Origin: Gammaproteobacteria bacterium
Lineage (GTDB): Bacteria > Pseudomonadota > Gammaproteobacteria > GRL18
Assembly: GCA_016744395.1 (NCBI GenBank)
Contig: JADGEK010000003.1
Coordinates: 45,204 to 109,203, forward strand
Length of the DNA stretch: 64,000 nt
Reading direction: 5' to 3'
Shown: positions 29,033 through 36,940 of the stretch, piece after piece
Layout: the number at the start of each line of letters is the position of its first letter
Position numbering within the stretch: position 1 is the stretch's first letter
The notes under the pieces: generated by a model
What the model was told of the DNA's origin: nothing
The model's input: only the letters and a program-made list of their open reading frames with translations
Databases searched by the model: none
Made by a program: the position numbers and the translations under genes

Positions 29033-29323
29033 TACGTTAAATAAATAAAACTGACTTAAGGGTTGTTTTAGGTGCTTTTATCATTAGAAAAACATCATTT
29101 TATCATATTGTACTCATTTACTTCCTATGTATCGTTTTGCCTGACTTTTATTTTAAAACATTCGTGTTTTACTTTTACCACACTCTTTGCCCTCCCCTGT
29201 CCATAATTCCTACATCCTCCCTGTAAAACTTCTGATATTATTCATCCAAGGATCTTAGCCCCTATCATAATTGTAATTTCCAAAAAATAATTTTTGTGCT
29301 TACGAACATCAAATTGAGTATTT

Positions 29324-29620
29324 ATGAAACATAGAAAATCCTTAGCCGAATTAGAGCAATCTGGTCAATATGGTTCAGTCGTTATAAGAAATTGTAATTG
29401 CAATGCTTCCTCAGCTCTTTGTACCCAACATTTTTCCTTTACACATGCGCCATCACTACCATTAAAAGGATGCACTGCCAGCAAATGTACCTGTGAGTAT
29501 CAGGGCATTGTTGATCGACGTCTTGGCGGCAGGCGAGTAACTAATTGTAGTGATTGTATCAAAGGCGATAAGCGCAAATCCGATAGGCGTGAACAAAACC
29601 AGGTAACTCTTAATAAATAG
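29324..29620 (+). CDS. Small cysteine-rich basic protein
   Basis: A 98-residue protein with nine cysteines, arranged CNCNASSALC, CTASKCTC and CSDC, which suggests metal binding. Three short basic clusters (DRRLGGRR, KGDKRKSDRRE) could bind nucleic acid or anionic lipid. I know no family. The 290-base stretch before it (29033-29323) holds no other gene I can support. Confidence 0.5.
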   Translation: MKHRKSLAELEQSGQYGSVVIRNCNCNASSALCTQHFSFTHAPSLPLKGCTASKCTCEYQGIVDRRLGGRRVTNCSDCIKGDKRKSDRREQNQVTLNK

Positions 29621-29740
29621 TCTTCCTAACTTATCATCTTAGTGAGTTTGATTTCATAGTTTTTCACAGATAATCCATGCAGCTATTGAATAGACAAATA
29701 GCTATAATGTACTTAATCATCAAAAAAAACAGGCTTACAA

Positions 29741-30241
29741 ATGAACTCAACTGAACCAATCAATTTACATAAAGAGATCCCTTTGGTTGAAGTTGTTATT
29801 GAGATACCTCGGGGTAGTTTTTTGAAACGCGGCTCTACTGGGGAGTTAGATTTTATATCTCCTTTACCTTGCCCATTTAATTATGGCTCAATTCCAGCAT
29901 TCATAGGTTTAGAGGGTGATTTGCTCGATGCTGTAGTGCTTGGTCCACGCCTTGCTGCTGGTAAAAAAGTAAAGGTTTACGCATGGGGGGCTGTTGGATT
30001 GACTGACCGTGGGTTATATGATGATAAATTAATTTGCAGTCAGCATCCAATTTCTCAATGGCAGCAACAGTTAATTATTATTTTTTTTAATGTCTATGCC
30101 AAGGCAAAAAAATTACTTAACATAGTAAGAGGCCGTAATGGGCCTAACCGCTGTGAAGGTTGGCATAAAGCTGAATGTGCCTTAGCCAGAGCAACACCAC
30201 GTAATAACATTGAATGGAAAGGACCAACGATTTCATTCTAA
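29741..30241 (+). CDS. Divergent inorganic pyrophosphatase family protein
   Basis: A 166-residue member of the soluble pyrophosphatase family. EIPRGS, CPFNYGSIP and GDLLDAVVLGPRL follow the usual order EIPxGS, YPxNYGYI and DGDPLD. Compared with E. coli Ppa, the first metal-binding aspartate (Asp65) is Glu here, and Glu98 in the TDE motif is Arg (LTDRG), while Asp97, Asp102 and Lys104 equivalents remain (LYDDKL). The canonical enzyme is about 175 residues. The changed ligands suggest altered activity or a different substrate; a second, normal pyrophosphatase probably exists elsewhere. A GC-richer C-terminus (NIVRGRNGPNRCEGWHKAECALARA) contains the usual tyrosine/lysine region in modified form. 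Confidence 0.75.
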   Translation: MNSTEPINLHKEIPLVEVVIEIPRGSFLKRGSTGELDFISPLPCPFNYGSIPAFIGLEGDLLDAVVLGPRLAAGKKVKVYAWGAVGLTDRGLYDDKLICSQHPISQWQQQLIIIFFNVYAKAKKLLNIVRGRNGPNRCEGWHKAECALARATPRNNIEWKGPTISF

Positions 30242-30790
30242 GAAAATAAAGTCATATCAATATTTGGATATTTAAGTCAGTACTTATAATTTCAACTAAG
30301 CAATAGAAACAAAACATTGAGTTTAGTTGATCAGTGTCAACAACTCCTTCGAAACTAAAAATATCTTACAGACAAAATTGAAAGTTTAGATCATACTTAA
30401 TTATAAGAAATAATTTTATATTTTCAACCGAATTTAAAAGGCCTCGCCTAGCCGATAACTGGCTACAGCCTACAGACCACAAAAGATGTCATAGGCACTC
30501 AATCATCTCCACTAGCTGATACCTTGCGGGGTTTTATTTAGTCCTAAATAATCTTTACATTCAGATAAATTAACAGACAGAACATCTAAGCTGATAGGTT
30601 ATTAACGGTATTAGTCTCATCCATCATTAAATATTAATATTTTTCCTACAGACTTTGTAACAAGGATAGTGAATTATTTAAAGTAAAGCTCAACCATGAT
30701 TTTTAAGCTATTATTTTGCAATTTCATCGATTGTACATGAGGTTCTTAGCACAACACATTAAGATACTCCTGTCATTTGTGAGGTGATAT
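30242..30790. other. 549-base gene-free gap
   Basis: I found no reading frame, tRNA or strong hairpin here. The only local structure is a five-base-pair stem TAGCC/GGCTA near 30454-30470 inside a slightly GC-richer patch. The ribosome site GAGGTGATAT for the next gene is at its right end. Confidence 0.6.
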
Positions 30791-31513
30791 ATGCCTAAAG
30801 ATAATAAAGAACAAGCCATTGAAGTTGAAGAAGTTACCTGTGCAGCTTGTTTAAAAATCATTCCATTCTCTGAGGCACAGAGTAAAAATATAGCTGATAA
30901 TATTATCCATTTCTGTGGTTTAGATTGTTATGACGACTGGAAACACCAGAAGTCATCGGGCAATTCAGACTATAATATTAATTTTCTTATTGGTATTTAC
31001 GGTTTATGGGAATATAAATATGAGCAAGCCAGAGACTTTTTTCTCAAAGCCGTCACTGAAACTAATCAATTAGATGCGCAATATGATGTTTATCTATCCT
31101 ATTTAGGATTGTCAGAAGTATTAATTGATAATAAGAACGGTGCTTTACAGCATAGCAATCATTCCTTTAACACTTCTCTCTCTATTAAGCCAGAAATCCA
31201 GCTTAACCTGGCGTGTGCTGAGTTGATCAAAGGTAATCGAAAGCGTAGTGTTCAAGCAGTACATAAAATTGATGATTTAAAATTATCACCCAGAAACTCT
31301 GAAGAACTCCATTCCTTTTATAATATCATTGGCAAACGCGAGAAAGATGATAATGGCTCATTGAAAAGAAACAAATTTTTTCATAAGACTATGGGAAAAG
31401 TGTTTAGAAACAGAGCAAGTGTTGTGACAGGACGAGTTGAATTATTTATTATAAATACCGCCCAAGAACGTTATAGTGGTGCTATGGCCAAAATGAATAA
31501 TCAGCTACTTTAA
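30791..31513 (+). CDS. DUF3330-type zinc-binding plus TPR-like protein
   Basis: A 240-residue soluble protein. The N-terminus (about 13-55) has VTCAACLKIIPFSEAQ and HFCGLDCYDDW, the CxxC...CxxxC arrangement of DUF3330, likely a zinc knuckle. Residues about 65-190 form helical pairs like tetratricopeptide repeats (YGLWEYKYEQARDFFLKAVTE, YLSYLGLSEVLIDNKNGAL, IQLNLACAELIKGNRKRSV). The C-terminus is basic. DUF3330 is usually a short stand-alone protein, so this fusion is less common. Function unknown. Confidence 0.6.
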   Translation: MPKDNKEQAIEVEEVTCAACLKIIPFSEAQSKNIADNIIHFCGLDCYDDWKHQKSSGNSDYNINFLIGIYGLWEYKYEQARDFFLKAVTETNQLDAQYDVYLSYLGLSEVLIDNKNGALQHSNHSFNTSLSIKPEIQLNLACAELIKGNRKRSVQAVHKIDDLKLSPRNSEELHSFYNIIGKREKDDNGSLKRNKFFHKTMGKVFRNRASVVTGRVELFIINTAQERYSGAMAKMNNQLL

Positions 31514-31557
31514 ATCAAAAAGCTGATCATGGAGTGGCTTATATCAGCCATGATATA

Positions 31558-31723
31558 TTACTTCTCCTTCGCCTCAAACTTAATCAATTTCTCCAGCGGA
31601 TCCTGTTGCAGTAGTTCTCCAACTGACGCCTTCTTTTCCTATCCCCTACTTCCCACCAAAAATATCTTGTAATAATTGTTCAGAAAATTGCCATATTTCA
31701 TCCTCAAATAAAACAGATTCCAC
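31558..31723 (-). pseudogene. Possible decayed reading frame
   Basis: On the minus strand, an uninterrupted stretch to the TAA at 31560-31558 reads GELLQQDPLEKLIKFEAKEK, and just before it, in another frame, MESVLFEDEIWQFSEQLLQDI ends at TAG (31648-31646). Both look like coding sequence in composition, are out of frame with one another, and together lack a long open frame. A broken small gene is the simplest reading, but neither part matches a family I know. Confidence 0.25.
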
Positions 31724-31770
31724 CTCCAAAATGGTTATTAATTATTAATCTCCATCAATGGAAAGCAGCA

Positions 31771-33267
31771 ATGAAAAATATTTTCAATACATTAACACCT
31801 CAAACCGAATCAAACCGCAGACAAACAGAACATTCATGGGTATTGATGTTAAGTATTTTATGTTCGTTTATTGCAGCACATTTTGTTTCCAATGAAGCGC
31901 TTGGGCTCAACTTTGTATTACTTAATCTCTTTGGCATCACAGCCATTATTTATTTAAGAAAAAAATTCCAACAAGTCATTAGCAAAAGTGATTATTTATT
32001 GATAACCAGTGCAATAATTATCAGTCTTTTTTTTGTTATTAGAAAATCAGATGTCTTATACGGTCTTAACTTTTTAGCATTGTTTATCATTACCTGGGTT
32101 GCCTTCTCTCAAAGATATACAGGTTCCCTTTTTGACATCCCAATGATTGCCTGGCTGATGACTCCTTTTCGATTAGTCCGTCTTTGTGTGGTGAGTACTA
32201 TACGCTCAATCTCAATTGGTATTCCCCCCAGTTTACGGCTAACAGACAAACATAAACAGATCCGTTCCGTTATTCTTGGCACCCTATGGACTTTGCCTAT
32301 TTTATTGCTACTAGGTTCACTATTGATATCTTCAGATAGTCGATTTGAACATTTTGCCATGAATATTATGTCATTTAAATTATCTGATATTTTCCATACA
32401 TTATTATCTTTCATTTTATACTTTCCATTATTCAGTGCTCTCTTTTATGCTGGCATTTTAGGTGCTGCTCATAAAACAAGCCTAAGAAAAAATTCACCTC
32501 TCTTTTTAGAAGGCATTCAAATTTTAACGATATTGACATTGATTAATATCTTATTTTTAAGTTATATCCTGATTCAATTCAGTTATTTTTTTGGTGGCGA
32601 ACAAATCATATTTGAAGCGGGCAGTCGAACTTATTCATCTTATGCTCGACGCGGATTTTGGGAATTAATTTTCTTAGCAATGATAGTCTTACCCTTATTG
32701 CTCATTGCACACTGGTTGCAACGTAATGAAGAAAAGTCATTACAAATCTGGTTTAAGCGTGCTGCCACACTTATGGTAGTTTGCCTTATCATTATTGAAG
32801 CATCAGCCATACATCGTATGTATCTTTATGTGAAAATATATGATTTGACAGAACTGCGCTTTTACTCCAGTGCTTTTATGCTATACATGATGGCTGGGCT
32901 TGTGACTTTTTATTTTACTGTGCTGAAAAATAAACGAGAACAATTTATTGTCGCCCTATTTTCTCAAACAATAGCCATGATTCTTAGTTTAAATCTTATT
33001 AATCCTGATGCACAAATCAGTCAATATAATATGTCCCATAATCAACATCCAAAAATTGATGTCAACTATTTGAAATCACTGAGCACCGATGCTTACCCAA
33101 GCATTTATAAGCAAAAAAAATCGCTGGCCCATTTTTCTTCGTGCACCTTACATCGCCAATTAAAGTTGAAATTAAGACGTGTAGAGAGTCAAACCAAGCA
33201 ATGGAACTGGTCAATAAATCAAGCACAAAAAACCATCAAACTTTGGGATCAGCAGTGCAAACAATAA
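31771..33267 (+). CDS. DUF4173 family polytopic membrane protein
   Basis: A 498-residue protein with about ten to twelve transmembrane segments. YARRGFWELIFLAMIVLPLLLIA, then IYDLTELRFYSSAFMLYMMAGL, and a closing soluble tail (about 410-498) containing NYLKSLSTDAYP, match DUF4173 proteins. The family is widespread but uncharacterised. It is convergent with the helicase gene, 59 bases away. Confidence 0.8.
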   Translation: MKNIFNTLTPQTESNRRQTEHSWVLMLSILCSFIAAHFVSNEALGLNFVLLNLFGITAIIYLRKKFQQVISKSDYLLITSAIIISLFFVIRKSDVLYGLNFLALFIITWVAFSQRYTGSLFDIPMIAWLMTPFRLVRLCVVSTIRSISIGIPPSLRLTDKHKQIRSVILGTLWTLPILLLLGSLLISSDSRFEHFAMNIMSFKLSDIFHTLLSFILYFPLFSALFYAGILGAAHKTSLRKNSPLFLEGIQILTILTLINILFLSYILIQFSYFFGGEQIIFEAGSRTYSSYARRGFWELIFLAMIVLPLLLIAHWLQRNEEKSLQIWFKRAATLMVVCLIIIEASAIHRMYLYVKIYDLTELRFYSSAFMLYMMAGLVTFYFTVLKNKREQFIVALFSQTIAMILSLNLINPDAQISQYNMSHNQHPKIDVNYLKSLSTDAYPSIYKQKKSLAHFSSCTLHRQLKLKLRRVESQTKQWNWSINQAQKTIKLWDQQCKQ

Positions 33268-33326
33268 TTAAAATAGGTTTGGAGAATTTTTTTATTGAGT
33301 GGGTAAGCACTTATTATTGTCCTCCT

Positions 33327-36014
33327 TTACTGCCAACGATCCTGACGTTTGACATCATTTTCAAAAGCCGATGAAAAAGATTTCATTTTTGCCTTGAGTA
33401 ATATCGCTCTGCCATTATCATTTCGGGTATACACCAATTCTGATGGCCCCACATATTCTTTCCAAGCAGTATAAAATATTTCAGCATTTTTCTTTTTAGC
33501 CGCTAAAATTATTGGTACAGCATGATAGTCATCTCTTGCTGAACCATAAACATGCCCATTGCGAACAATCAAATACCTTGGGCTGTCAATGGGTAACAAT
33601 ATTTCTGCCAAACAATTAGCAAACAAAGATGATTCATAAAACGAACCACCCTGAAGGGATAAATAGTAAGTTCCATCCATCGCTTCATGCACTTTTATTT
33701 CAAGCTGTCTATATTCTGTTTCAATTAACTCTGTTTGACACAGTGCCGATGCTAAAGCCTGACCAATTTGTTTGATGGAACCCTCAACGGGTAAATGTCG
33801 TAAAAGAATCCGCAGCACCGTAATTGATTTTTTAAAATTAAAGAGAAAAATACCAGCCAGAACCATTGAGAGAATTATAAAGTACGTTGAAAAGCTATCA
33901 GTCCTTATTGCCCCAAAGCCGCTGAGCACACTTGATGCCGCAATACTTATTTGATACGCCAAGTGCTTTAATGTATTTTTAAAATGGTATAAGCGAATTT
34001 TGGGCAAACGCCCCGTCTTCACTGAAGGTAAAACTCGTGCCGACTCAGAATACATCAAAGCGTCGCGCCAACGCTGTATCATTAATTCAGAAGTATCATA
34101 ACGCTTCATCATCTGTTTATTATTAGCTTTGATGGCCTTTCTAGGTTTCAATAAAGATAAATGCTTAAATCCCGTTGCATTTAACCGCTCAAAACCACTT
34201 TCAATTAAATTTTCTTTTTCTGAAAGCCCAACAAATGTTTCAAAACGTTTATGTAAATTGGAATAATCACTGAGACCACTATAACTCTCTGTATCGATCG
34301 CAACCAGATGCCAAATGCAGCTAAACTTATTATCAACGTGTTTATCAATTCTTATGGCACGACCGCGCATTTGATTGGTCAGCATAAAAGAGCCCACCGA
34401 ACTTGCCAACACCAATGAGTTAACCACAGGCGCATCCCAGCCTTCCCCTAACAAAGAACGAGTCCCCACCAGAGTCAAAATATCTCCTGACATAAGCATT
34501 TCAGTATAGGCAGCGGTGAGAAGGTTGAGTGGTCCTGAAACTTTGTAATAGTTTTCCTGCCCTGCAAACATTTCTGTCGAAAAACGTTCTTTGGGAGAAA
34601 TTTCAAAAAATCTATCAAGCAACGTACGATGAATAATGCTCAATCGACCTGTCAGCAATGCGATTCGCTCAGGGATTTCAGAGCGTGAAACCAATCGTTT
34701 ATAGATGGGCCATGCACCCAATGTATTTTGTCCACTGTCAATGTCTGAACCTATATTTTCATCTCGAATATAATCCGTCAATATAACTTGTCGTAGAGAT
34801 TCACCACGATATTGGTATTCAAGTTCATGCAGTTTTAAACAGGCTGAAATTTTTGAAGCACTTAAAGACAGCGAGCGTTCAATACGACGTGAGCGTTCTA
34901 AAGATAAATCTCGTTTATACAGTAGTTCAGATGCCCTGAGTTGTTTTTTAAGTTTCTCAATAAACCTTTTTTGCTCTTCTGTTTTAAAAAATGTATTTGA
35001 GAAGAGTAAACTTTCAATGAGTATTTGCCACCAATGCCTACCCAATTCTGGTATATCTTTACGATCAAGATCGAGTATGACACAAAGACTCCGAGGGATT
35101 TCTTGTTGTTTTGCTTTAATAAAAACCAAAAGAGAAATCGCAATATAGGGCTCTTTTATAATTGCTTGCTTATCAATATTACTGGACAGCCAGGGATGTG
35201 AATAAACGATTTGAACAAATGGTTCACTATCAAACAAAGATGCACACAAATCTGTTACTCTATTATCATATTCCTTTACATCCTGTTTCTCAGTTGTAGA
35301 GACATCAACCGCCCATACATAATCCTGATGCGGACACAGTGTACCAGCCTTAACCAGCTCTGGAACTGATATTTCTTCATCAATGGGGCCACACAATTGC
35401 TCATATTTATTCCACTCATGACCCTGTGCATCATAAGGTGGTGTTGCGGTCAAAGAAACTAAAATCAACTCAGGAAGCTCTTTACTAACCTTTGTCAAAG
35501 CTCGCCACCATTCCGATCTAAGATGGTGTGCCTCATCCATAATAATGACTTCAATTTGATGAGTTTTCAGTGATTCAATAAAGACATTAATATTATCAAT
35601 ATCACCTTTGTCATTAAACTCATCATTTTCATCCTCTTCTTTTTCCAGTTCAGATGATAACTGAGCATGCAGAGCCTGATAGGTTATTGAGGTTAATATT
35701 GCAGGCTTTCTTATTTCTCGACTGACCCAATCCAATTCAAAAGGATCATCAGTTTCAAGGAAATCCATTAAACGCTGAATCCATTGATCACGAATGGTTC
35801 TCGTCGGTGATAGAACTAATGCACGTTTTTGAAGCCTGCAAAAAACTTCTAAGCCGAGTGTTGTTTTGCCTGCCCCAGGTGCAGCCACAATATGTAAGCG
35901 CTTATCATCTAAATGTTGATCAATCGCATCAAGCACTCTTTTTTGATAAGGACGCCAGGAATATCGAAACTTTAAATCACTATAACTCATTTGATACAAT
36001 GGTATTGAACTCAC
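33327..36014 (-). CDS. SF2 DEAD/DEAH-type helicase with C-terminal membrane segments
   Basis: An 895-residue superfamily 2 helicase. Motif I AAPGAGKTT (44-52), motif II DEAHH (160-164), motif III SLTATPP (about 187-193), a GTRSLLGEGWDAP motif V region and motif VI QMRGRAIR are all present, so it should hydrolyse ATP. Residues about 118-142 are an acidic insert. After the helicase core, residues about 685-725 contain two hydrophobic runs (ISIAASSVLSGFGAI and YFIILSMVLAGIFLFNF), then a mixed domain of about 150 residues (YYLSLQGGSFYESSLFANCLAEIL...). Related helicases occur as stand-alone genes in many bacteria and have no agreed function. The gene's ATG overlaps the stop of the VOC gene by four bases. 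Confidence 0.85.
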   Translation of the reverse strand: MSSIPLYQMSYSDLKFRYSWRPYQKRVLDAIDQHLDDKRLHIVAAPGAGKTTLGLEVFCRLQKRALVLSPTRTIRDQWIQRLMDFLETDDPFELDWVSREIRKPAILTSITYQALHAQLSSELEKEEDENDEFNDKGDIDNINVFIESLKTHQIEVIIMDEAHHLRSEWWRALTKVSKELPELILVSLTATPPYDAQGHEWNKYEQLCGPIDEEISVPELVKAGTLCPHQDYVWAVDVSTTEKQDVKEYDNRVTDLCASLFDSEPFVQIVYSHPWLSSNIDKQAIIKEPYIAISLLVFIKAKQQEIPRSLCVILDLDRKDIPELGRHWWQILIESLLFSNTFFKTEEQKRFIEKLKKQLRASELLYKRDLSLERSRRIERSLSLSASKISACLKLHELEYQYRGESLRQVILTDYIRDENIGSDIDSGQNTLGAWPIYKRLVSRSEIPERIALLTGRLSIIHRTLLDRFFEISPKERFSTEMFAGQENYYKVSGPLNLLTAAYTEMLMSGDILTLVGTRSLLGEGWDAPVVNSLVLASSVGSFMLTNQMRGRAIRIDKHVDNKFSCIWHLVAIDTESYSGLSDYSNLHKRFETFVGLSEKENLIESGFERLNATGFKHLSLLKPRKAIKANNKQMMKRYDTSELMIQRWRDALMYSESARVLPSVKTGRLPKIRLYHFKNTLKHLAYQISIAASSVLSGFGAIRTDSFSTYFIILSMVLAGIFLFNFKKSITVLRILLRHLPVEGSIKQIGQALASALCQTELIETEYRQLEIKVHEAMDGTYYLSLQGGSFYESSLFANCLAEILLPIDSPRYLIVRNGHVYGSARDDYHAVPIILAAKKKNAEIFYTAWKEYVGPSELVYTRNDNGRAILLKAKMKSFSSAFENDVKRQDRWQ

Positions 36015-36289
36015 TTATTTATCTCTTCTGGCCCAGCCCGAAAGAAGGAATGGTATGCCACTTCCCTTAAATGACCATCAGGATCTTTAAAACAGCCTGA
36101 ATAACCACCCCAGTCAGTTTTCTGAGGCACTTTTGCGCTCGTTGCACCCACAACTAGAGCATATTCAATGATTTGACCCTCTTCAGATGGAGAATCCATT
36201 TTGGGAAAGCCCAAGCCCTCTTGATAAAATTTGACTGACGTATCCATGTCTTTGACACCTAAAGTAATGAGACTAATTCTTCCATCCAT
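36011..36289 (-). CDS. VOC (glyoxalase-fold) protein with an internal deletion
   Basis: A 92-residue protein. Its N-terminus RISLITLGVKDMDTSVKFYQEGLGF and C-terminus WGGYSGCFKDPDGHLREVAYHSFF match a common single-domain VOC family of about 130-140 residues. The part between residues about 40 and 45 is missing some 40-50 residues, including the strand with central metal ligands. The frame is kept, so this looks like an in-frame deletion. A functional VOC barrel is doubtful unless the remainder dimerises in a new way. Its stop overlaps the helicase start (ATGA), giving a coupled two-gene unit. A multi-residue tail RAGPEEINK replaces the usual end. Confidence 0.75.
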   Translation of the reverse strand: MDGRISLITLGVKDMDTSVKFYQEGLGFPKMDSPSEEGQIIEYALVVGATSAKVPQKTDWGGYSGCFKDPDGHLREVAYHSFFRAGPEEINK

Positions 36290-36303
36290 AACTTACACCA
36301 TTA

Positions 36304-36384
36304 AAAATTCTATCTCTAATTAAACTTCAATTTGACCTTTCATGTATTGTACTGCTTTGCCAGAAATTAAAATTCTATCTCTAA
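36304..36384. repeat. 16-bp direct repeat
   Basis: AAAATTCTATCTCTAA occurs at 36304-36319 and 36369-36384, 65 bases apart. The second copy encodes part of the 56-residue minus-strand frame and the first lies immediately past its stop, as if a duplication or a repaired deletion had occurred here. Confidence 0.85.
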
Positions 36385-36490
36385 GTAATTCACAATAAAC
36401 TTCTCCTCCACGGCTTGAAACCTGCTTTGAGTGAACGAATCTCAGATGAGTTAAAAGAGATTTTAATCCATAAAAATCCCATTGATGCAT
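36320..36490 (-). CDS. 56-residue hypothetical protein
   Basis: The frame starts MHQWDFYGLKSLLTHLRFV at 36490 and continues SKQVSSRGGEVYCELLRDRI to a C-terminus KAVQYMKGQIEV. AGGA lies 8 bases before the ATG. Composition is that of a folded soluble protein, not random AT-rich sequence. It is not recognised as a family member and could also be the remnant of a longer gene. It is upstream of the VOC-helicase unit on the same strand, about 30 bases away, so it may be its first gene. Confidence 0.45.
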   Translation of the reverse strand: MHQWDFYGLKSLLTHLRFVHSKQVSSRGGEVYCELLRDRILISGKAVQYMKGQIEV

Positions 36491-36940
36491 TCGAGCATTC
36501 CTGACTTTTCAGAAAAAAGTCAACTTAACACTGAAGAAAGTAAAATTCCTGCAGTTATAATTATTTTCATAGCATTTACCTCTATTATTTTTGTATGAAT
36601 TTTAAGAATAAGACATGAAGTGCGGAAAACAATGTGAAATGTCAGTAATTATTTGATTAATAAAATTTATTTATCCAGAAATGGAATATGTAAGGCTGTC
36701 TTACGTTTAACCATGGGATATCTCTACTATCTAATTAATCACGGGTAAAGAAATTAAATTTTGGGTATTTTATCACTAACCTGCAGATTAATATCAAATA
36801 ATACATTTTATTTTTAAGATACGACTAATAAATTTTGACATTTTAATGTACAATTATCAAATATACTATTTTATTAATTATAAATGTCTGAACAAAACAA
36901 TGAATTGTAATGGTCAACCTTTTTATCTGGAGCAAAATAA
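36491..36940. other. 450-base gene-poor gap
   Basis: Very AT-rich and without a supported gene. The right end carries GGAG, the ribosome site of yebG. I looked for a LexA box (CTGT-N8-ACAG) before yebG and saw none. Confidence 0.5.

What the first reader, a model, noticed from the sequence alone, without database searches (positions are those of the whole stretch)
33327..36014. SF2 helicase carrying membrane segments
The helicase motifs are complete, yet about residues 685-725 form two hydrophobic runs, then a conserved-looking C-terminal domain of unknown fold. A membrane-held helicase or translocase would be unusual; defence against incoming DNA at the envelope is one idea. Its locus is gene-poor, with deletions and repeats typical of accessory regions.
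Basis: partly seen in the sequence, partly recalled or inferred. Interest (0 to 1): 0.55.

Follow-up and report, generated by a model that had tools for sequence, protein, structure and literature searches.

The report
Membrane-anchored stand-alone bacterial helicase gene
A bacterial DNA/RNA motor protein carries a built-in greasy hairpin that very probably fixes it to the cell membrane, and its gene travels alone between unrelated bacteria, as genes for fighting viruses often do; what it does has not been tested.

Summary
Window 33327-36014 (-) encodes an intact 895-aa SF2 helicase (ResIII/XPB-like; motifs invariant in 20 of 20 family members). Residues 685-727 form two hydrophobic segments. 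In 19 members this stretch has the lowest sequence identity (0.25) but the highest hydropathy of any region; the window protein's hairpin score (1.73) exceeds all 46 control SF2 proteins (maximum 1.41). That is the signature of a transmembrane hairpin. The first segment is weak in 10 of 19 members, and one clade lacks the hairpin but has a small coupled partner gene. The family is rare (0-2% of sampled genomes) and scattered. The window copy lies in a 7.8-kb insert absent from four congeners; a fifth keeps a decayed copy elsewhere. Five relatives share this gene (84-91% DNA identity) amid mostly unrelated flanks, two of them near known defence genes. So it is a single-gene mobile accessory. 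No nuclease motif or universal partner was found. Best reading: a membrane-tethered DNA translocase acting at the inner membrane, most likely against phage or plasmid DNA; the membrane part is well supported, the defence role is inference (about 0.4). Ten literature searches found no description.

The parts
33327..36014 (-). SF2 helicase/translocase with membrane hairpin, 895 aa (GTG start; alternative ATG at 35988-35990, 887 aa)
35319..35966 (-). RecA-like domain 1 (about residues 17-232): Walker A APGAGKT, DEAH box, SLTATPP
   Evidence: Pfam ResIII 1.1e-22; invariant residues in 20 of 20; XPB-like hits in PDB
34815..35297 (-). Family-specific insert between the RecA domains (residues 240-400), helical only in a low-confidence model
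34290..34802 (-). RecA-like domain 2 (residues 405-575): motif V GTRSLLGEGWD, motif VI NQMRGRAIR
   Evidence: invariant cores in 20 of 20; not detected by PF00271 at E 0.001
33834..33962 (-). Hydrophobic hairpin, residues 685-727 (segments 685-703 = 33906-33962 and 707-727 = 33834-33896), predicted membrane anchor with a short outside loop
33330..33779 (-). C-terminal domain of unknown fold (residues 746-895); invariant R813 Y814, P834, A844, T863 R864, G868 R869, L872
   Evidence: models too weak to place the fold
36011..36289 (-). Glyoxalase/VOC-family fragment (92 aa) directly upstream, 4-bp overlap with the helicase GTG start
29047..36808 (.). Lineage-specific insert that holds the helicase; near-empty in congeners G012, G005, G013, G011; different 2.4 kb in G003

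Best explanation
A self-contained (single-gene) accessory protein. An XPB/ResIII-like SF2 ATPase motor in the cytoplasm is tied to the inner membrane by a two-segment hydrophobic hairpin between its post-RecA region and its C-terminal domain. Shown here: an intact, conserved motor; the conserved hydrophobic hairpin; spread as a single gene and patchy gain and loss. Inferred: the hairpin spans the membrane with both soluble parts inside; the motor moves on double-stranded DNA; its substrate is DNA at the inner membrane; the benefit is interference with incoming phage or plasmid DNA by ATP-driven translocation, not by cutting, since no nuclease motif is seen. The C-terminal domain, with conserved Arg and Tyr, would be the nucleic-acid or partner recognition part.
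For: Motor intact: motif cores invariant in 20 of 20. Closest solved relatives are XPB-type proteins. Hairpin: identity 0.25 (lowest of six regions), mean hydropathy 0.93 to 1.84 in 19 of 19 with no other region above 0.17; window score above 46 of 46 controls; charge pattern 6/1/4 K+R in the window. Accessory and mobile: 1 of 369 class genomes (the own one), 4 of 398 phylum genomes, 8 of 397 in one alphaproteobacterial family with one per genus (the samples share some genomes); near-empty site in four congeners; decayed copy in a fifth. Single-gene unit: five loci share the helicase at 84 to 91% DNA identity with otherwise unrelated flanks, except that L056 and L128 also share a relaxase region. 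Defence company: Type IIG RM plus integrase at L055; integrase, MobA relaxase and PD-Lambda-4_A at L128. Precedent that membrane anchoring can aim a DNA-acting defence protein at injected DNA: SNIPE (PMC13190303; abstract and passages read).
Against: No functional data. Only 2 of 20 full-length loci were found with a recognised defence gene nearby and no matched background was computed; many loci have ordinary neighbours. PADLOC has no family for it. The first hydrophobic segment is weak (below 1.3) in 10 of 19 members, and Tritonibacter and Rhodovulum forms lack the hairpin. Recurrent envelope-stress neighbours (SPFH/NfeD at L127, Band_7 at L002, the DUF4178/spermine-synthase operon at L013) fit an envelope role as well.
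Confidence: 0.4

Rival explanations
1. Envelope or DNA stress-tolerance factor, not immunity: the membrane-held motor handles chromosomal DNA or nucleoprotein near a damaged membrane.
For: SPFH plus NfeD genes, the latter ending 25 bp upstream, at L127; Band_7 gene near L002; Tritonibacter locus carries DUF4178 and spermine-synthase-like genes, an operon type linked to PspA systems in PMC11237479 (passages).
Against: Those neighbours occur in a minority of loci; patchy single-gene spread and decay are unusual for stress housekeeping; no LexA-type box near the gene.
Confidence: 0.2
2. A DNA transfer or uptake motor (ComFA-like in role) or an element-encoded helper that aids transfer of its carrier.
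For: Presence beside MobA relaxase genes at L056 and L128 and an integrase at L128; a membrane-held DNA motor suits transport.
Against: The most similar copies sit in different contexts and the gene moves without the transfer genes; no competence genes were noticed among the neighbours that were scanned.
Confidence: 0.12
3. A membrane-tethered RNA helicase (SF2 motors often act on RNA), for example tied to RNA turnover or to sensing phage RNA.
For: An SF2 core alone does not tell DNA from RNA; membrane-tethered RNA degradation is known (recalled).
Against: Closest profiles are ResIII and XPB-type DNA translocases, not DEAD-box RNA helicases; no RNase neighbour was seen to recur.
Confidence: 0.1
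4. The hydrophobic hairpin is not in the membrane but is a buried or dimerisation helical hairpin of a soluble protein.
For: Ala/Gly-rich and weak in the alphaproteobacterial members; dispensable in the Tritonibacter clade.
Against: Sequence there is the least conserved of all regions while hydrophobicity is kept, the opposite of a buried core; window and gut members exceed every control.
Confidence: 0.15

Closest known systems
XPB/RAD25-type SF2 DNA translocases (XPBII, archaeal and human XPB)
   Same: RecA1 aligns best to them among solved structures
   Different: Far below the XPB equivalog cut-off (36 of 610 bits); carries a roughly 150-residue inter-RecA insert, a membrane hairpin and an unrelated C-terminal domain
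ResIII family (Pfam PF04851), Type III/Type I restriction motor subunits
   Same: Best Pfam match, 1.1e-22
   Different: No methylase among the window neighbours scanned and no nuclease motif; restriction-subunit models score far below cut-off
Hna (stand-alone SF2 helicase-nuclease defence; PMC13381803, passages read)
   Same: Single gene, similar length (845 aa), two N-terminal SF2 domains
   Different: Hna has a C-terminal PD-(D/E)XK nuclease and resembles DinG; the word membrane does not occur in that paper's main text. Here no conserved acidic active site and a membrane hairpin
SNIPE (membrane-bound nuclease cutting phage DNA during injection; PMC13190303, abstract and passages)
   Same: A poorly conserved transmembrane part anchors a DNA-acting protein at the inner membrane
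   Different: [quoted passage not shown] this protein is a helicase without nuclease
PbeA / Dnd-type restriction helicases
   Same: Weak match over the RecA1 core
   Different: 29 of 600 bits against the curated Dnd cut-off; no dnd or pbe partner seen among the window neighbours

Membership tests
SF2 helicase/translocase superfamily | Walker A, DExH box, motif III, motif V and motif VI | tested here: met
   Cores invariant in 20 of 20 aligned members; PF04851 over cut-off
SF2 helicase/translocase superfamily | RecA2 recognised by Pfam Helicase_C (PF00271) | tested here: not met
   Window locus absent from the own-genome PF00271 list at E 0.001; motifs V and VI are nevertheless readable, so the domain is divergent and superfamily membership stands on the motifs
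XPB (NF045503) | Score over the equivalog cut-off | tested here: not met
   36.1 against 610 bits
Dnd/PbeA phosphorothioation restriction helicase (TIGR04095) | Score over the cut-off | tested here: not met
   29 against 600 bits
Hna | C-terminal PD-(D/E)XK nuclease | tested here: not met
   No invariant Asp, Glu or Lys between residues 584 and 895 in 20 members; motif-level test only
SNIPE | DUF4041 and GIY-YIG domains | tested here: not met
   Pfam scan lists neither
Type III restriction-modification | Adjacent Mod methyltransferase | tested here: not met
   None among the seven window neighbours scanned
Integral membrane protein | Insertion in the membrane | not testable with these tools
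   Hydropathy and conservation support it; needs fractionation and topology fusions
Anti-phage defence system | Protection from phage or plasmid | not testable with these tools
   Only context evidence
ComFA-like uptake ATPase | Sequence or operon link to competence genes | not tested
   ComFA itself was not compared; papers seen only as a search listing

The most novel reading that the evidence does not exclude
A previously undescribed, widespread single-gene immune family: a membrane-hairpin SF2 translocase that stands at the inner membrane and defeats incoming phage or plasmid DNA by ATP-driven translocation or extraction, without a nuclease, discriminating foreign from own DNA by place of entry. 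In one clade the built-in membrane hairpin has been replaced by a small partner protein encoded just upstream.
Probability: 0.2. Interest if true: 0.85.

Novelty: new variant of a known kind. Interest (0 to 1): 0.57.

Why it matters
A bacterial SF2 helicase with an internal membrane anchor was not found described in the ten literature searches made. If the hairpin inserts and the gene protects from phage, it would be a nuclease-free way to tell foreign DNA by its place of entry, next to SNIPE. The family offers natural controls: hairpin-bearing and hairpin-less forms with conserved motors. It also gives a tractable single gene to test.

Tried and rejected
Structure: AlphaFold2 of the whole protein with one relative gave mean pLDDT 33 and of the C-terminal domain 49; both are too weak. 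Foldseek gave no match at E 0.001 or better. VIA-align's best Z was 5.5 (rmsd 3.6, 98 aligned, MotB periplasmic domain), within the tool's stated noise, so no fold is claimed.

Viral relatives: five viral-contig scans found no full relative. The two phage-labelled records L015 and L016 are unverified short faecal fragments.

A conserved partner gene was sought: 128 neighbours (ORFs of at least 150 aa within 6.5 kb of 14 loci; shorter ORFs, L014 and L020 left out; ORF calls mechanical) gave no family present in most loci. The six loci fetched later (L125-L130) were scanned only in part. NUDIX genes at three loci (L002, L012, L016) were considered: roughly 0.4 expected by my estimate of NUDIX frequency (recalled), but some 120 families were compared, so I do not claim a link. 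PADLOC matches named mad3, mad8, AriA, HTH_VI and PDC-M43B were not traced to their proteins. The RecD-like PADLOC matches at L056 come from its MobA relaxase.

SOS control by a LexA-type box: none near the helicase. Distant DNA search of E. coli genomes with an alphaproteobacterial copy: no match, uninformative for protein-level relatives.

Control proteins were open frames, some cut at locus ends. The family rows are 13 of the 19 later hairpin-bearing members: 11 of 13 exceed the highest control (1.41), L054 (1.39) and L056 (1.24) do not, and the best pair of L017 (133/165) lies outside the hairpin while that of L057 (705/741) lies only partly in it.

Full report
What is there. The ORF at 33327-36014 on the minus strand is intact, 895 aa from a GTG that overlaps the stop of a short glyoxalase-family fragment. 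It occurs once in its genome. Pfam recognises only the first RecA domain (ResIII 1.1e-22); NCBIfam and PADLOC give only weak core matches far below cut-offs where these exist. Among solved structures the only clear relatives are XPB/RAD25-type translocases, over the first RecA domain.

The family. Searches brought 20 full-length members including the window: gammaproteobacterial L002 (61%), L058 (56%) and L017 (53%), several other proteobacterial ones at 32 to 36%, a Paenibacillus megaplasmid (L012, 33%), two gut contigs labelled phage (L015, L016), and the Tritonibacter form L013. Motor motif cores are invariant in 20 of 20, so the ATPase is under selection. After residue 576 the invariant residues are D583, R590, G607, R610, N632, W649, R813, Y814, P834, A844, T863, R864, G868, R869 and L872: no nuclease signature.

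The hairpin. Across the 19 members that have it, residues 685-727 show the lowest mean pairwise identity of six regions (0.25) and the highest hydropathy (0.93 to 1.84 per member; the next region never exceeds 0.17). The window protein has a hairpin score of 1.73 against a maximum of 1.41 in 46 control SF2 proteins; of the 13 hairpin-bearing members scored, 11 exceed that maximum, 7 of them at 1.7 or more. In the window, 6 K/R precede, 1 lies in the loop and 4 follow, the pattern of a hairpin with both ends inside; L015 and L016 have acidic upstream flanks and do not fit as well. The second segment is at least 1.36 in all 19, the first is below 1.3 in 10 of 19, so in the alphaproteobacterial members insertion of the first segment is uncertain.

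A natural hairpin loss. L013 (Tritonibacter) lacks the hairpin, and the downstream piece of the broken Rhodovulum gene has no comparable segment. In these, a 121 to 145-aa gene lies directly upstream with a 4-bp overlap; it is found in exactly the three plasmid records that hold this form of the helicase. Its function is unknown. L013 is a very long branch in the family tree.

Accessory and mobile. Presence: own genome plus one decayed copy among 24 genomes of the order (two further weak matches there are only N-terminal helicase similarity); only the own genome of 369 in the class draw; 4 of 398 in the phylum draw; 5 of 246, 1 of 199 and 2 of 247 in three other orders, the centre genome included each time; 8 of 397 in one family, one per genus. 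The draws share some genomes. In the window the gene lies in a 7.76-kb stretch (29047-36808); flanking DNA is contiguous, with gaps of about 70 to 480 bp, in four congeners, and a fifth holds a different 2.4 kb. The DUF4153 gene of the insert lies elsewhere in three congeners. In five alphaproteobacterial genomes the helicase gene is 84 to 91% identical in DNA while the flanks differ, apart from L056 and L128, which also share a relaxase region. The transferred unit is therefore the single gene.

Company. L128: tyrosine integrase, helicase, MobA relaxase and PD-Lambda-4_A (5e-201); the PD naming series comes from PMC9519451, of which I saw passages but not one on that system. L055: an MmeI-like Type IIG enzyme 0.7 kb away and an integrase. 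L056: MobA and a 1350-aa protein without Pfam family. Most other loci have ordinary neighbours and no partner recurs family-wide. A minority have envelope-stress genes: SPFH plus NfeD at L127, Band_7 at L002, and at Tritonibacter DUF4178 and spermine-synthase-like genes with a small DUF350-like ORF (that last by eye), an operon type that PMC11237479 links to PspA.

How it probably works. Anatomy says: a cytoplasmic DNA motor held at the inner membrane. Being a stand-alone, gained-and-lost gene found partly on integrative elements with defence cargo, it most likely acts on foreign DNA at entry, and without cutting. Shown: intact motor, conserved hydrophobic hairpin, single-gene mobility. Inferred: membrane insertion, DNA as track, defence. 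SNIPE (PMC13190303, abstract and passages) shows that an inner-membrane anchor can aim a DNA-acting protein at injected phage DNA. Rivals are an envelope-stress role, a transfer role, an RNA role, or a soluble hairpin.

Literature. Ten searches found no description of a bacterial SF2 helicase with an internal membrane hairpin. The library lacks most subscription papers, so this is weak evidence of novelty.

Noticed in passing
L013:11540-11977 and L014:8414-8851 (upstream of the helicase): Small coupled gene (58% identical between Tritonibacter and Rhodovulum) found only with the hairpin-less helicase form; may replace the membrane hairpin in trans.
   Followed up: partly
L127:7226-8586: SPFH and NfeD genes ending 25 bp upstream of the helicase, same strand; possible membrane-microdomain operon.
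   Followed up: no
L002:8340-9047; L012:16707-17480; L016:371-1003: NUDIX genes next to or near the helicase at three loci (L002's is NrtR-type by Pfam); L012's is followed by nicotinate phosphoribosyltransferase, nadD and nadE.
   Followed up: partly
L056:4551-8600: A 1350-aa protein with a Walker A-like stretch and no Pfam family, next to the helicase and a MobA relaxase; candidate unknown defence gene.
   Followed up: partly
window 29047-36808: Hot spot next to yebG: congeners hold almost nothing or a different 2.4 kb here; the insert carries gene fragments (pyrophosphatase-like 29741-30241, glyoxalase 36011-36289) and a DUF4153 gene that lies elsewhere in three congeners.
   Followed up: partly
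window 34290-34802: Second RecA domain is not recognised by Pfam Helicase_C at E 0.001, although motifs V and VI are readable.
   Followed up: no
L020:9453-10258: Decayed helicase copy in a congener at a different site; only parts matching residues 543-639 and 735-895 remain.
   Followed up: yes
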